From Flavobacterium piscisymbiosum (GTDB lineage: Bacteria; Bacteroidota; Bacteroidia; Flavobacteriales; Flavobacteriaceae), in contig NZ_JAJJMM010000001.1 in the NCBI RefSeq assembly GCF_020905295.1, forward strand, positions 992,001 through 1,056,000: a stretch of DNA of 64,000 nt. Direction: 5' to 3'. Below are positions 8,714 through 50,195 of this stretch, piece by piece; within the stretch, counting starts at the first letter, position 1, and each line of letters starts with the position of its first letter. The position numbers and the translations under genes are program-made. Below the pieces are notes generated by a model that searched no databases, had not been told where the DNA came from, and saw only the letters and a program-made list of their open reading frames with translations.

Positions 8714-9193
8714 CTATTTTAAAACTCTAAAACTTCCTTCTGTAACAGTAAATGTCTGTTCTCCTGAAGTAGTTCCCGAAAAAGTAAATGTACCTTCAAT
8801 TTTTTCATTATCAACAGCGGTAATATTTATTTTTCCAGATTTAGCATTAGCATTATTTATTGCAGGCAAAAAACTAAAAGACGCTTGATAAGTAGTCTCC
8901 ATATTTGATAAATCATATACGATATCATGGCTTCCCTTAGTAACATTCAAAGGTGTCCATAATGAGATTTTTTTGTACGTGTTATCAATTCCCGTACTTC
9001 CCATAATATTCATGTTTAACGAAGACAGAACGCCAGGCTCAAAATTGTATACTGTTCCATTGTATGTGAATTTGATAAATTCTTCCTGATCGTCCGGAGT
9101 TCCTTCATCATCAGAATCATTACTACTGCATGACGATAACACCATTGCGCAAATGGCAAAAGACAAAAACATAATTTTTTTTAAGATTTTCAT
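8714..9193 (-). CDS. Hypothetical lipoprotein
   Basis: 159-residue exported protein of unknown function. The signal peptide MKILKKIMFLSFAICAMVLSSC ends in a lipobox with Cys22, followed by an acidic Ser/Asp linker (SSNDSDDEGTPDD). The mature part looks like a single small beta-sandwich: FTYNGTVYNFEPG, then EGTFTFSGTTSGEQTFTVTEGSFRV, a C-terminal pattern common in small flavobacterial lipoproteins that may carry structural beta hairpins. It stands alone, convergent with radA. No family could be named with confidence. Confidence 0.7.
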   Translation of the reverse strand: MKILKKIMFLSFAICAMVLSSCSSNDSDDEGTPDDQEEFIKFTYNGTVYNFEPGVLSSLNMNIMGSTGIDNTYKKISLWTPLNVTKGSHDIVYDLSNMETTYQASFSFLPAINNANAKSGKINITAVDNEKIEGTFTFSGTTSGEQTFTVTEGSFRVLK

Positions 9194-44906: not shown

Positions 44907-45234
44907 CAAAGTTTTTTATTAGCTATGTCAGGCTGAGCGAAGTCCAAGCCCCGCAAAGTTTTTTTAATAAGTTTTAATTAATCGCGCAATCCCGATAGCT
45001 ATCGGGAGCAAAGGCTTAAAGTTTTATTTTAAAGCCACATATTAAAAGATTAAAGTGATTTTTTAAATCTGCTAAAATCTTTTAAAATCAGCGTGAAACA
45101 AAAAATGCTTTATAATCTTTGCGCAGATGGATTAAAATCCATCCCTACAATATAAATCGAGCCAAAGGCTCTTTCTAAAAAAATTTGCGGGGCTTCGACT
45201 CCGCTCAGCCTGACATAGCTAATAAAAAACTTTG
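44907..45234. repeat. 48-bp inverted repeat with 232-bp interior
   Basis: Arms 44907-44954 and 45187-45234 are reverse complements with two mismatches, beginning CAAAGTTTTTTATTAGCTAT and containing GTCAGGCTGAGCG. Inside lie the self-complementary CCCGATAGCTATCGGG (about 44988-45004, also found at 62063), a KpnI-like set of AAAATC words, and no ORF. The whole 44851-45256 gap holds nothing else. It looks like a non-autonomous mobile or regulatory palindrome, but no target duplication was seen. Confidence 0.75.
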
Positions 45235-45256
45235 CGCTGCTTGCGGTTAAAAAAAC

Positions 45257-45799
45257 TTAAGCCCTCTTAATCTCATGCCCCACATATTCCTCCAAAGCAG
45301 CAAACATATCATCTACAGAAAGTACTTCGAAATCAGGATGGTTTTTCAGGAAATTAGCATTTAGCGTAATCAGGTTTTCTTCAAGTTCAAAAAACGTATC
45401 ATTATTCAAAGAATCGCGAACCGGATTTACACCTTCCAGTTTTCCGCTTACAAATTTATTCAGCTTTACGCTGCTCATTAGTTTTACCTTTTTGCTTTGT
45501 TGCTGAAACAATTCAAGATGTTTTTCGGCGCCAATTAAAGCCAAACCTTCTTCGATAAGTTCGTTCAATTCCTTGTTCCAACCCGATTTATAAACAAACT
45601 GCGAAAAATTCCCTTCCGCATATTGCGAATAGTAATAATCGAGATAATAACTCATCAACGCATCTTCGTGAATAAACTCGTCATCGACACCTTCCTCACG
45701 CATTAAATTAATTACCGAAATATTAGAATGAATCACATCCTGAAGATTTTCACTATTCATTGCCGTTTCAGAAACTAGTATTCTACCGAACTCCTCCAT
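45257..45799 (-). CDS. DMP19/DUF4375-like protein
   Basis: 180 residues, mostly helical and acidic. The segment DALMSYYLDYYYSQYAEGNFSQFVYKSGWNKELNELIEEGLALIGAEKHLELF resembles DUF4375 (DMP19), a family found among immunity proteins. No signal peptide. No toxin gene is adjacent. The first gene of the accessory region, leftward; the pentapeptide-repeat gene is divergent about 300 bp away. Confidence 0.7.
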   Translation of the reverse strand: MEEFGRILVSETAMNSENLQDVIHSNISVINLMREEGVDDEFIHEDALMSYYLDYYYSQYAEGNFSQFVYKSGWNKELNELIEEGLALIGAEKHLELFQQQSKKVKLMSSVKLNKFVSGKLEGVNPVRDSLNNDTFFELEENLITLNANFLKNHPDFEVLSVDDMFAALEEYVGHEIKRA

Positions 45800-45865
45800 T
45801 TTGATATTTTTTAAGATTGATTTGCAAATTTCGATGAAATAATAATAGGATTCACAATAATTTTT

Positions 45866-45956
45866 TGGGCGTTCCCTCCGGTCGGGCTATTCGCTGCAAG
45901 TCCTCGCACTTCCTTCGTCAGGCTGTGGGCTTTTCGCTACTATCCCTAACGCGAAT
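45866..45956. repeat. GC-rich dispersed repeat
   Basis: GGGCGTTCCCTCCGGTCGGG at 45867, then CTTCCTTCGTCAGGCTGTGG and finally ATCCCTAACGCG. By eye this is above 50% G+C in an AT-rich genome. The wording matches a repeat I recall from many Flavobacterium genomes; the ends of the element could not be defined from one copy. The rest of the 45800-46095 gap is AT-rich, with no ORF. Confidence 0.65.
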
Positions 45957-46095
45957 CAGTTTTTATAAGAAGATTTTATTTTATGAGATTTTTGAAGTAA
46001 AAAAAGTATTTTAGCACCACAAAAATTTAATCTAATTAACCATCCTTATTTAAAGTAATTATACATACACTTTCAAATAAATAAACTATTCAATT

Positions 46096-46626
46096 TTGGA
46101 AAACGCAAAAATTATAAAAAGAATTGGTTACATCAGCCTTGCCATTGGTGTTCTAACACTCTTAATCTTCCATAATTATCCTGAAAGTTGGATTTTTAAA
46201 CCATTCGTACAAGATACATATGCAAATTTTTCTTTTGAACTTTTAAGTATTTCTGCTACGATTTTATTGATAAATTATCTTTATGAGAACAAAGAAATTG
46301 AAAACAACAAAAAACGACTTATTAGAGAACTAGGAAGCGAAGACAAAGGGTTCACTTCTAGGGCACTAAAAGAGATTAAGGAACTAGGCTATTTAACAGA
46401 TGGCAGCTTGAACGGGATAGATTTATCAAAAGCAAATTTAGAGGGATTGGATTTCTCTAATGCCTGTTTGGAAAACACTATTTTTAACAACGCATTACTA
46501 AATAAAGCGATCTTTAAATATGCAAATTTAAAAAATACCAGTTTTCTAAATGCCGAATTAAGAGAAAGTAATTTTGAAAATGCGATATTTGACAAAACCG
46601 TACTTAAAAATTCTAATTTGTATTGA
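46096..46626 (+). CDS. Membrane-anchored pentapeptide-repeat protein, N-terminal part (stopped by in-frame TGA)
   Basis: 176 residues up to a TGA at 46624-46626. Two membrane helices come first (IGYISLAIGVLTLLIF and FELLSISATILLINYLY), then a charged linker and a pentapeptide-repeat run from about residue 112 (NGIDL SKANL EGLDF and on). The start is TTG at 46096: the in-frame stop at 46078 is close upstream and no ATG lies near. The repeats continue in the same register beyond the stop to 46929, so the ORF is best read as a broken or read-through gene. The NACHT gene follows. Base composition is visibly poorer in G+C than neighbouring genes. Confidence 0.75.
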   Translation: MENAKIIKRIGYISLAIGVLTLLIFHNYPESWIFKPFVQDTYANFSFELLSISATILLINYLYENKEIENNKKRLIRELGSEDKGFTSRALKEIKELGYLTDGSLNGIDLSKANLEGLDFSNACLENTIFNNALLNKAIFKYANLKNTSFLNAELRESNFENAIFDKTVLKNSNLY

Positions 46627-46929
46627 TCAATACTTAACAATTCGAAAATTTCCAATTCTGATTTTTTAAATTCCAATTTTGAACTTGTAGAATTAATTGA
46701 TGTTCAGATTAATAATTCCAAATTTGATAGAGCTACATTTAAACTTTCCAATTTAACGAGAGCAAAATTTATAGAATGTAATTTAACCGGAGCAAATTTC
46801 AACAACACTAATTTAAAAAATTCTACATTTGAAAGATGTGATCTTAAAAATGTAGAAGATTGGCATAAATCTTCCGAATTAGCAAGTTGTAATTATAGCA
46901 CTTCAGTAAATATTCCAAATATAAACTAA
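46627..46929 (+). pseudogene. Continuation of the pentapeptide-repeat protein after the in-frame stop
   Basis: 100 further codons in the same frame without another stop until TAA at 46927. The pentads keep register across the stop: ENAIF DKTVL KNSNL Y*SIL NNSKI SNSDF, continuing to TRAKF IECNL TGANF NNTNL and ending SVNIPNIN. No ATG, GTG or TTG lies early enough to start it independently. Either a recent nonsense mutation (for example CGA to TGA) inactivated the gene, or the TGA is read through. Confidence 0.8.
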
Positions 46930-46941
46930 ATAAGATTAATT

Positions 46942-48447
46942 ATGCTTAACTATATTATAGAAGAAATTATATCTAAATATTTAGGATATAAGAGAAATCA
47001 TGAAGATGTAATGAAAATACATCAATCATTAGAACAATATATAAATAAAGAATACAATAAATTAAATCAAACAAAAAACTTAATTTTCAGAAATGAGCCA
47101 ATCAATTTTAACGAAAATTATATCCCATTAACATTAACAAGTAAAACAAAAAATTTCAGAGTAAATGATCCAATTAATTTAATAAAGGAATATGAGTATA
47201 TTGGAATTATTGGTTCTGCAGGTAGTGGCAAAACAACCATACTAAAACACATTGCACTTTCTTGTATTGAAAATCAATATAAAATACCTATTTATATTGA
47301 ACTTAGAAACTTAGAATCTAAAATTTTAAGTTTTGAAGATTATATTGCTTCATCAGTTAACGAAGATTTTCCTGATCAAATAAAATCCTTATTTAAATCT
47401 GGAGAATTTATATTTTTATTTGATGGATTTGATGAAATTGACTACGTAGAAGGTAATGATTTTATAACTAAAATTGACAGTTTTATTAACAAATATAATA
47501 ACAACATTTTTGTTATGACTTCTCGTCCTGGTACAAATATTGAAAGTATTCCACCCTTACATATTTTTAATATTAATCCTTTAAATTCTGACGATATTTA
47601 TTTATATGTTAATAAAATAAATTTACCTAATAAACTAAAAAGAGATATTCTTGACAATATTAAGAATAATTATAATTTAAAGGGGATTCTTAATATACCT
47701 TTATTCTTATCACTTTATATTGCTTCTTACAATAATGGCAATAAAAACTTTTTAGATAAAAAAAGTATCTTCTTTAGAAATATCATTGATGCACTATTCT
47801 CACATCATGATTCTATATCTAAATTAGGTTATGTAAGGGATAAAATCTCAGAATTAAACAAAGATGAACTTGAAAAAATAACAACAGCTCTTGCATTTAG
47901 AATGCTTTTTTCTGGAAAATTCGAACTATCTAAGGATGATATTTACAAAGAATTTGATATCATAAAAAGAACAACAAAAATAGCTTTTGAGAATGAAAAA
48001 TTATTATTTGATTTAACAATTACAATAAATATACTTTTAGATGAAGAAAATCATTATATTTTTCCTCACATTTTAATATTAGAATATCTTACTTGTTTAT
48101 TTATTAGCAGACTAGACAACACTTTTAAACAAGAATTTTACAACAAACTAGCAAGAAACAGTAGAATTTATTTGAGTCAAAATTTTTATGATTTTTTACA
48201 CGAATTAGACTATAAGTACTTTACTAAATATTATATAATAGCATTATTGAAAAATTACTTAAAGAATACTATCAATTTTTCAGATGAAGAAAATTTTCGT
48301 GATATAAAAAATGGAACTATAATACCATATATAGCTGAAAAATATGGACCTAAATATGATTTGTATGAAACACTAAATATGTTGGAACTTGAATTTATAA
48401 ATGATGATAATAATAGCTTTTCAAATGATTTATTTGATGTTTTATAA
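46942..48447 (+). CDS. NACHT-domain STAND NTPase
   Basis: 501-residue cytosolic NTPase of the NACHT class. Walker A GSAGSGKTT (91-99), Walker B FIFLFDGFDEID with Asp161 and Asp164/Glu165, the Arg-containing sensor VMTSRPG (near 195), and the GILNIPLFLSL motif with its Pro near 253, all in the expected order. About 240 C-terminal residues (helical, e.g. ITINILLDEENHYIFPHILILEYL) show no LRR or TPR motif I recognise. Bacterial NACHT proteins are often anti-phage sensors that kill or arrest infected cells. It starts 12 bp after the pentapeptide-repeat frame ends and is markedly AT-rich, suggesting transfer. Its stop codon lies in the loop of a terminator hairpin. Confidence 0.88.
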   Translation: MLNYIIEEIISKYLGYKRNHEDVMKIHQSLEQYINKEYNKLNQTKNLIFRNEPINFNENYIPLTLTSKTKNFRVNDPINLIKEYEYIGIIGSAGSGKTTILKHIALSCIENQYKIPIYIELRNLESKILSFEDYIASSVNEDFPDQIKSLFKSGEFIFLFDGFDEIDYVEGNDFITKIDSFINKYNNNIFVMTSRPGTNIESIPPLHIFNINPLNSDDIYLYVNKINLPNKLKRDILDNIKNNYNLKGILNIPLFLSLYIASYNNGNKNFLDKKSIFFRNIIDALFSHHDSISKLGYVRDKISELNKDELEKITTALAFRMLFSGKFELSKDDIYKEFDIIKRTTKIAFENEKLLFDLTITINILLDEENHYIFPHILILEYLTCLFISRLDNTFKQEFYNKLARNSRIYLSQNFYDFLHELDYKYFTKYYIIALLKNYLKNTINFSDEENFRDIKNGTIIPYIAEKYGPKYDLYETLNMLELEFINDDNNSFSNDLFDVL

Positions 48448-48475
48448 AAACATCAAATAAATCATTTGCTTTTTT
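48422..48475 (+). terminator. Intrinsic terminator overlapping the NACHT stop codon
   Basis: 21-bp perfect arms 48422-48442 and 48448-48468 with loop TATAA, followed by CTTTTTTT. The TAA of the NACHT gene is in the loop, so the last six codons are part of the stem. Confidence 0.9.
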
Positions 48476-48523
48476 TCATGTTACAAGGCTGATTTGGAAA
48501 CATCAATCAAAAACAAAATCCTC

Positions 48524-49285
48524 ATGCCCCAAATACACCACCTCAACTGCGTGAAAATTGTTTCACCCGTAAACGACAATGTTTGCGGACATTGTTTATT
48601 GATTCAGGAAAACGACAAACTCATTTTAGTCGATACCGGAATTGGTCTTTTAGACATTCAAAACCCGGAAGAAAGAATCGGTCAACAACTTATAGATATG
48701 GTTGGATATCGTTTTGATGAAAATCAAACCGCAATAAGACAAATCGAAAAACTGGGACTTGATCCGGAAAAAGTGACCGATTGTATTATTTCTCATCTCG
48801 ATAATGATCATATTGGCGGTTTGGCAGATTTTCCAAACGCAACCGTTCACGTTGGATTGGAAGAATGCGACAACTATATTTCAGGAAATCCAAGGTATTT
48901 AAAAACACCTTTATCGCATCAGCCAACAATAAAAACCTACGAAAAATTAGATTTGAACTGGTTTGGATTCGAAGCCAGAAAAGTCGACATCGATACTGAA
49001 ACAGAAATTTACCTAATTCCCCTTTTCGGACATACATTAGGACATTGCGGTGTTGCGATAAAAACAGAAAAAGGATGGTTATTTTATATTGCCGATGCTT
49101 ATTATATGCGAATTGAACTTACCAATAGCGATCATCCCGTAAACCAATTGGCAAAAATGCGAGCCGAAGACAACGATTTACGATTGAGCACTTTAGATAA
49201 AATCAGAAATTTAATAAACGAACATCCTGAAATCGAAGTTTTTGGATATCATGATATCGAAGAGTTTAATTTTTATAAGAACTAA
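48524..49285 (+). CDS. Metallo-beta-lactamase-fold hydrolase (lactonase-like)
   Basis: 253 residues from the ATG at 48524 (a TTG ten codons upstream is also open). Metal-binding motif ISHLDNDHIGG (HxxxDH), second His in GHTLGHCG, Asp in IADAYYMR, and the final His in GYHDIEEF. It resembles N-acyl-homoserine-lactone lactonases such as AiiA, but substrate specificity is not readable. It follows the NACHT terminator directly and has normal base composition for the genome, so it likely forms the right boundary of the AT-rich unit. Confidence 0.85.
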   Translation: MPQIHHLNCVKIVSPVNDNVCGHCLLIQENDKLILVDTGIGLLDIQNPEERIGQQLIDMVGYRFDENQTAIRQIEKLGLDPEKVTDCIISHLDNDHIGGLADFPNATVHVGLEECDNYISGNPRYLKTPLSHQPTIKTYEKLDLNWFGFEARKVDIDTETEIYLIPLFGHTLGHCGVAIKTEKGWLFYIADAYYMRIELTNSDHPVNQLAKMRAEDNDLRLSTLDKIRNLINEHPEIEVFGYHDIEEFNFYKN

Positions 49286-49434
49286 AAAGCAAAATTTTAT
49301 AAAAAAAATAGAAATTTTAACGCAACCATTTTTCAAAAGGGTCATCTGTTAACAAAGAGAATGCTTTATCCTATCCTGAAATACTCAAATACGAAAAAGC
49401 AGTTCTCTATTAAAAACGTAAAAACCCTTAGTTT

Positions 49435-49760: not shown

Positions 49761-50195
49761 ATGAGCTTAAACTACAACTTAGAAACACAATTTCTAAAAA
49801 AAGTCGAGGATCCTAATAATATAACAAACAAAAGAGAAATATTAACAGATGATCAAATAAAAGACATTCTTGAAAAACACCCAAAAATTCCGAAAGATTA
49901 TATTGCTTACTTGCAAGAAATTGGTTCCGGAAATTTTAGAGAATGTAAATTTAAAGTCCATCCCTTTCTTTTTGATCTTGAAGATATTGGACTTGAAGAT
50001 CATTATGAGCTAAAATCTAATGTATATTTTTTTGGAGATAATTATTGTGGCGACTTTTCAGGCTTTGACTTTGACAATAATGACGGCAATGTTGTCGAAT
50101 TTTGGCATGAAAGCGGAGAACTATATTATACTAATCAATCTTTTCATACTTACATTAGGGAACAAATGCAAATAGATGAAGACGAAAATAGCTAA
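49761..50195 (+). CDS. SMI1/KNR4 (SUKH) family protein
   Basis: 144 residues of the SUKH superfamily, typical immunity proteins of contact-dependent toxin systems: ILEKHPKIPKDYIAYLQEIGSGNF (start motif), then YFFGDNYCGDFSGFDFDNNDGNVVEFWHESGELYY. Acidic, cytosolic. The last 20 bp overlap the next gene, so the two are coupled. A cognate toxin is not in the window. Confidence 0.85.
   Translation: MSLNYNLETQFLKKVEDPNNITNKREILTDDQIKDILEKHPKIPKDYIAYLQEIGSGNFRECKFKVHPFLFDLEDIGLEDHYELKSNVYFFGDNYCGDFSGFDFDNNDGNVVEFWHESGELYYTNQSFHTYIREQMQIDEDENS

What the first reader, a model, noticed from the sequence alone, without database searches (positions are those of the whole stretch)
46096..48475. AT-rich pentapeptide-repeat membrane protein plus NACHT NTPase: candidate defence module
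Seen: a two-helix membrane protein with a long pentapeptide-repeat tail, then 12 bp later a NACHT STAND NTPase with intact Walker A, Walker B and sensor residues, ending in a terminator that overlaps its stop codon. The unit is visibly poorer in G+C than genes on both sides and sits between a DUF4375-like gene with a GC-rich repeat on the left and a normal-composition hydrolase gene on the right. Established: bacterial NACHT proteins include anti-phage systems, and pentapeptide repeats occur as sensor domains of some STAND proteins. Inference: here the sensor or effector part is split off as a membrane partner, so the pair may be a two-gene abortive-infection system. I do not know of a described system with this exact make-up.
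Basis: partly seen in the sequence, partly recalled or inferred. Interest (0 to 1): 0.8.

Follow-up and report, generated by a model that had tools for sequence, protein, structure and literature searches.

The report
Paired membrane solenoid and NACHT genes
A flavobacterium carries a rare two-gene unit, found repeatedly in related bacteria, that joins a membrane protein with a rod-like repeat tail to an inflammasome-like switch protein; it looks like a virus-defence system I could not find described, although the first gene is interrupted in this particular strain.

Summary
Window 46096-46929 encodes a membrane protein with a pentapeptide-repeat (PRP) tail, 46942-48447 an intact NACHT STAND NTPase; a strong terminator overlaps the NACHT stop codon. 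The PRP gene has an in-frame TGA at codon 177 and no ATG/GTG/TTG restart, so this copy is probably inactive; it is open in the 4 other genomes read.
The pair is conserved. All 12 fall in one clade of 45 NACHTs (support 100); the other 33 members are unchecked. None of 49 more distant loci has a PRP neighbour. PRP and NACHT distances correlate (r 0.88, 12 pairs). The distant NACHTs are longer, some with a SNaCT C-terminal domain; the paired clade has a short tail there.
The NACHT is the lowest-GC ORF of 325 sampled; another small gene occupies the slot in a same-genus genome; Septu lies 116 bp upstream in Tenacibaculum; one topB-prfA interval holds two divergent copies in opposite orientations.
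Best reading: a two-gene, membrane-tethered NLR-type defence system, a new variant of bacterial NACHT immunity. Function is untested.

The parts
46017..48515 (.). accessory segment: the stretch of the window with no counterpart at the same site in same-genus genome G004 (L065), between conserved flanks
   Evidence: blastn of window 45200-49300 against L065 8000-10300: flanks align at 81% (45256-45840), 81% (45856-46016) and 79% (48516-49285), nothing between; one genome compared
46096..46929 (+). 2-TM pentapeptide-repeat membrane protein gene, interrupted by TGA at 46624-46626 (ORF as it stands 46096-46626, 176 aa)
46624..46626 (+). in-frame TGA (codon 177); the gene is open in the DNA of the 4 other genomes read
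46942..48447 (+). NACHT STAND NTPase, 501 aa; NLRC4-like core; no recognised effector domain, no SNaCT match, short variable C-terminal tail (about residues 440-501)
48422..48475 (+). intrinsic terminator: 22-bp hairpin overlapping the NACHT stop codon, followed by a T run

Best explanation
A two-gene, membrane-tethered NLR-type immune unit. Shown by sequence: a predicted 2-TM protein with a helical linker and a pentapeptide solenoid is co-inherited with a NACHT NTPase whose C-terminal region is much shorter than in its relatives. Inferred: the NACHT is the nucleotide-gated switch, resting as a monomer; a phage cue releases it and it oligomerises into an NLRC4-like ring; the solenoid, on the cytosolic side, is the docking arm that links ring and membrane, so that ring assembly gathers the 2-TM helices into a pore or leak that stops the infected cell (abortive infection). 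The PRP protein is thus taken to be the effector, possibly also the site of sensing. In this strain the PRP gene is cut by a stop codon, so the unit is probably a dead or dying copy.
For: Pairing in 5 of 5 genomes read, gaps of 6, 11 and 12 bp or 4-bp overlaps; 8 NACHT-PRP matches by identical longest-contig length against about 0.1 expected, one of them the directly read F. cupreum pair; all 12 pairs inside one clade of 45, SH-aLRT 100, quick method; distance correlation r 0.88, 0 of 20000 permutations (the 5 read pairs alone r 0.84, 4 of 120; the 7 inferred pairs alone r 0.67, 20 of 5040). NTPase residues invariant in 45 of 45. Best Foldseek matches of the NACHT model by E-value are NLRC4, NOD2 and NLRP3; TM-score 0.58 to active NLRC4. 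The NACHT carries no recognised effector or SNaCT domain, so one role may fall to the partner. Septu PtuAB 116 bp upstream in L007, SLATT_5 about 4 kb upstream in L006. Variable slot in one same-genus genome and two divergent copies in the topB-prfA interval. SNaCT-bearing clade 14 bNACHTs are reported to defend against phage (PMC12169576, passages).
Against: No phage assay exists. PADLOC gave only weak P-loop matches for the NACHT and none for the truncated PRP; the full PRP was not scanned there. The solenoid matches pentapeptide proteins of many functions, so the fold gives no function. Defence genes were seen near the pair in 2 of 4 other genomes, among 10 hand-picked neighbour proteins. 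Correlated distances show co-inheritance, not binding; no complex was modelled. None of 49 more distant loci has a PRP gene, so NACHTs of the wider family do without it. Most top Foldseek rows have TM about 0.4 and rmsd about 15.
Confidence: 0.55

Rival explanations
1. Same two-gene defence unit, but the PRP membrane protein is the sensor or the site of sensing (its solenoid recognises a phage protein or an envelope change) and the NACHT carries an unrecognised effector activity, as may hold for SNaCT NACHTs that lack a discernible effector.
For: The paired NACHTs lack the longer C-terminal region of their relatives, so the PRP may have replaced it. In bNACHT proteins the C-terminus is the sensing part, and clade 14 has no readily discernible effector (PMC12169576 passages).
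Against: Most invariant positions of the PRP protein lie in the second helix and the linker after it, not in the solenoid, which fits gating better than ligand recognition.
Confidence: 0.25
2. The pair is not anti-phage but a membrane stress or signalling module, or anti-plasmid, that happens to be mobile.
For: Function untested; both folds are used for other tasks; no PADLOC system model matches.
Against: Rare patchy distribution, low GC, variable slot, neighbours Septu and SLATT_5 in two genomes, and relatedness to SNaCT NACHTs.
Confidence: 0.15
3. About this strain only, compatible with the others: a decayed remnant. The stop codon has killed the PRP gene and the NACHT is an orphan; or the stop codon is a sequencing error and the unit is intact.
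For: In-frame TGA, no restart codon after it, gene open in 4 of 4 other genomes read. The frame after the TGA is otherwise undamaged, which fits a recent single change or an error.
Against: NACHT is intact with all motifs; a 176-residue truncated membrane protein could keep some function. Reads could not be checked.
Confidence: 0.8
4. The PRP protein restrains a toxic NACHT (antitoxin-like).
For: Two-gene order with the small partner first.
Against: Here the PRP gene is broken while the NACHT is intact and the cell lives, which speaks mildly against a PRP needed to hold the NACHT off.
Confidence: 0.05

Closest known systems
Bacterial NACHT proteins with short C-terminal SNaCT domains (bNACHT clade 14)
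   Same: The NACHT core aligns over window residues 2-436 with a SNaCT9 protein (hhalign probability 100, E 2e-55); clade 14 members defend against phage and have no readily discernible effector (passages).
   Different: No SNaCT match in the window protein and none among the families shown for the 45-member clade; a dedicated 2-TM pentapeptide-repeat partner gene instead. Place in the published tree could not be tested: Kibby 2023 is not held.
Hailong (HalA/HalB)
   Same: HalA is an antiphage protein that also matches the pentapeptide profile (chain 9nyi, E 7e-5; weak NF051894 hit, 14.9 of 250 bits). That it is an ion channel blocked by poly-dA adducts of HalB is from PMC13275509 (passage).
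   Different: The match covers repeats only; the adjacent partner is a NACHT NTPase, whereas HalB is a nucleotidyltransferase (recalled).
Avs / AVAST STAND defence proteins
   Same: STAND NTPase in an anti-phage context (recalled).
   Different: 501 aa without the long C-terminal sensor repeats of Avs (recalled); partner encoded apart.
STAND or TRADD-N conflict systems with pentapeptide repeats (PMC7159879, PMC8195603, PMC10853773; passages seen)
   Same: Pentapeptide repeats and STAND NTPases occur in the same class of bacterial conflict systems.
   Different: The passages seen describe repeats as domains fused in multi-component systems, not a 2-TM PRP protein paired with a NACHT.

Membership tests
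NACHT STAND NTPases | NACHT domain above the curated cut-off | tested here: met
   PF05729 45.0 bits against 26.7; 45 of 45 near-group proteins match at E 0.01
NACHT STAND NTPases | intact Walker A, Walker B and sensor arginine | tested here: met
   K97, D161, D164, E165, R195 identical in 45 of 45
NACHT STAND NTPases | NLR-like NBD plus helical and winged-helix fold | tested here: met
   AlphaFold pLDDT 81; Foldseek to NLRC4, NOD2, NLRP3, E down to 2e-12, TM-score 0.4 to 0.58
bNACHT clade 14 (SNaCT proteins) | short NACHT-associated C-terminal domain (SNaCT) | tested here: not met
   no SNaCT match in the window protein at E 1, none among the 25 of 30 families shown for the 45 near-group proteins, the 5 not shown matching at most one member each; in 37 more distant proteins SNaCT5 matches 9, SNaCT9 2, SNaCT8 1
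bNACHT clade 14 (SNaCT proteins) | position in the published bNACHT tree | not tested
   paper not held
Hailong | HalA above the curated cut-off | tested here: not met
   NF051894 14.9 bits against 250, scanned with the truncated ORF
Hailong | HalB-type nucleotidyltransferase as adjacent partner | tested here: not met
   the adjacent partner is NACHT in 5 of 5 genomes; HalB was not searched for elsewhere
PADLOC 2023 known systems | significant full-length model match | tested here: not met
   only P-loop matches of at most 19.9 bits for NACHT, none for the truncated PRP
Anti-phage defence system | protection against phage | not testable with these tools
   needs plating assays

The most novel reading that the evidence does not exclude
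A bacterial counterpart of the inflammasome-pore pathway split over two genes: a SNaCT-less NACHT ring that uses a pentapeptide solenoid as a rigid lever to gate a 2-TM membrane pore, having traded its C-terminal sensor for a membrane partner.
Probability: 0.3. Interest if true: 0.8.

Novelty: new variant of a known kind. Interest (0 to 1): 0.6.

Why it matters
SNaCT-type bacterial NACHTs protect against phage but how they stop the cell is open: clade 14 has no readily discernible effector (PMC12169576 passage). A related clade in which the NACHT is stripped down and comes with a membrane protein offers a two-part system in which sensing, switching and membrane action could be separated and tested, and suggests how NLR-type switches move sensor and effector modules between one and two genes.

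Tried and rejected
Viral contigs: 7 pattern matches, none encoding a relative. Phage records: 2 distant NACHTs at 25% identity; plasmids: 176 records, all under 60% identity; three plasmid NACHTs looked at had no annotated PRP next door (PLSDB gene tables are incomplete), one of them matching SNaCT5. Idea that the PRP is HalA: rejected on score and partner. Idea that pairing is a general property of NACHTs of this kind: rejected, 0 of 49 distant loci (L009-L050 and L052-L058; 48 of them with a NACHT ORF at 1e-3, L050 with none; 8, L043-L050, left out of the tree as too distant; L052-L058 hold about 1.5 kb of flank and several contigs are short; L069-L073 were not examined). Of 54 more distant proteins, 37 were compared and 17 (P0083-P0099) left out. 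Orphan PRP genes: no match but the window's in 395 Bacteroidota genomes at 1e-30, so the reverse pairing test was uninformative. Protein-database relatives of the PRP cannot show internal stops, being predicted ORFs; hence I rest 'open elsewhere' on the 4 genomes read. The slot comparison rests on one genome: G540 has the hydrolase (66%) but no match to the DMP19-like gene in the 18 kb taken. VIA-align and Foldseek found pentapeptide and other solenoids for the PRP model; the 2-TM part was hardly covered. SNaCT models match only a third of the 37 outgroup proteins, so 'loss of SNaCT' is really 'short tail instead of a longer C-terminal region'. Codon use is not extreme (96 of 144 similar-length ORFs lie further from the mean than the PRP ORF, 25 of 157 than the NACHT), so foreign origin rests on GC, distribution and the slot.

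Literature searches for the pair: in the open-access PMC library; none of the listings or passages seen describes it. Two more searches were about HalA. Kibby 2023 and Tan 2025 are not held.

Full report
What is there. The window lies in a 6.49-Mb genome, genus Flavobacterium by inference: F. cupreum's locus has the same contig coordinates as the same-genus genome G749. At 46096-46929 (+) lies a gene for a membrane segment followed by pentapeptide repeats; at 46942-48447 (+), 12 bp on, a 501-aa NACHT NTPase. A 22-bp hairpin spanning the NACHT stop codon, followed by a T run, is far more stable than shuffles (z -6.97).

The first gene is interrupted. Codon 177 is TGA (46624-46626). The frame then stays open and similar to relatives to its TAA at 46927, with no in-frame ATG, GTG or TTG after the TGA. 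In the DNA of the 4 other genomes read the gene is open, 279 to 290 codons. Database relatives are no evidence here, since predicted proteins cannot hold stops. The strain most likely makes a 176-residue stump with the membrane part and roughly half of the repeats. A sequencing error cannot be excluded.

The pair is conserved. NACHT relatives split into a near group (44 database proteins plus the window's, 491-514 aa) and more distant, longer ones (37 of 54 compared, 544-671 aa). A scan of one genome per species gave 46 loci. In all 4 near-group loci (F. cupreum, Chryseobacterium sp. Bi04, Tenacibaculum aiptasiae, Flavobacteriaceae PS02337) the PRP gene is directly upstream on the same strand, by 6 bp, 11 bp, or 4-bp overlaps; with the window, 5 of 5. 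In the other 42 loci, and 7 more from a family-wide search, no ORF matched the PRP profile at 1e-3, a threshold at which two other PRP genes of the own genome were matched; flanks are short in some. This test missed 3 of the 4 other pairs that I read directly, so the 33 near-group members without a match are simply unchecked. In a 123-protein tree the near group is one clade with support 100, the 12 pairs are spread across it, and the 41 unpaired loci included are all outside (quick method, long branches outside). PRP and NACHT distances correlate over the 12 pairs, r 0.88, 0 of 20000 permutations; over the 5 read pairs r 0.84 (4 of 120) and over the 7 inferred pairs r 0.67 (20 of 5040). This shows co-inheritance, not contact.

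What the proteins look like. The F. cupreum PRP protein is modelled with confidence (pLDDT 91): helix 6-26, a long helix 34-78, a helix 83-96, then a solenoid to near the end. Most invariant positions lie in the second helix and the linker behind it. Similar 2-TM plus linker plus repeat proteins exist more widely (for example P0138, P0152, P0163); their neighbours were not studied. The solenoid matches many solved pentapeptide proteins. The NACHT model (pLDDT 81) matches NLRC4, NOD2 and NLRP3 best. Its core aligns with a SNaCT9 protein up to window residue 436, and the SNaCT9 domain of that protein starts at its residue 446. The near group ends in a variable tail of about 60 residues instead, and no SNaCT model is among the families shown for its members. 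In the 37 more distant proteins SNaCT5 matches 9, SNaCT9 2 and SNaCT8 1.

Accessory and mobile. NACHT GC is the lowest of 325 ORFs sampled from 20 stretches of 20 kb and the window. Of 100 relatives (60 in the genus besides own) only the own genome matched the NACHT at 1e-10 by single-sequence search. With the profile, 7 of 398 genus genomes matched at 1e-60, 2 of them (own and F. cupreum) near-group; 8 of 397 family genomes matched, only the own one near-group. In same-genus G004 the flanking DMP19-like gene (86.5% protein identity) and MBL hydrolase (82%) lie in the same order, and a 379-bp stretch holding a small different ORF (read by eye) stands in place of window 46017-48515. That is one genome; in G540 the flanks are not together. 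In F. cupreum and PS02337 the flanks topB, PhzF and prfA are collinear but the pair lies in opposite orientations, with NACHTs 46% identical and in different subclades: most simply two independent entries into one interval. In T. aiptasiae a Septu PtuA/PtuB pair ends 116 bp upstream; in Chryseobacterium a SLATT_5 gene lies about 4 kb upstream. In the other two genomes the few neighbours scanned gave no defence system beyond weak helix-turn-helix matches; 10 proteins in all were scanned against PADLOC.

Mechanism. Shown: conserved operon-like pair, intact NTPase motifs, predicted membrane partner, accessory behaviour. Inferred from NLR and bNACHT biology: nucleotide switch, ring assembly, abortive response. 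Least sure: whether the PRP protein is the pore-forming effector (my choice), the sensor, or both. That the PRP gene is broken while the NACHT is intact argues mildly against the PRP being an antitoxin; I set that rival at 0.05 so that the four exclusive readings sum to one, the remnant reading being about this strain only. My own odds: conserved functional pair 0.95; defence role 0.75; PRP as effector 0.55.

Known or new. Pentapeptide repeats with STAND NTPases are described in conflict systems as fused domains (PMC7159879, PMC8195603, PMC10853773; passages). HalA, an antiphage protein, also matches the pentapeptide profile. Six literature searches show no description of this pair, within an open-access library that lacks key papers. 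I file it as a new variant of bacterial NACHT immunity.

Noticed in passing
window 45865-45960: GC-rich intergenic repeat of about 90 bp with 9 matches in the own genome, itself included (6 of 71 bp or more), also present at the same place in G004 (L065 about 8919-9083); it lies at the left edge of the variable slot.
   Followed up: partly
L005 9122-11521 and L008 9144-11485: The topB-PhzF-prfA interval hosts two divergent copies of the pair in opposite orientations: a likely flavobacterial defence hotspot.
   Followed up: partly
L007 7017-9009: Septu PtuA/PtuB pair immediately upstream of the Tenacibaculum pair.
   Followed up: yes
   Followed up: no
P0138, P0147, P0152, P0163: A wider family of 2-TM plus conserved linker plus pentapeptide-repeat proteins, unnamed or annotated as hypothetical or pentapeptide-repeat proteins; partners unknown.
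   Followed up: no
PQ189336.1 12793-13893 and PQ189349.1 12881-13981: Distant NACHT genes on roughly 15-kb Vibrio phage records.
   Followed up: no
window 49761-50195: SUKH-family gene (PF09346; immunity-type family, recalled) close to the slot; GC 29.7%.
   Followed up: no
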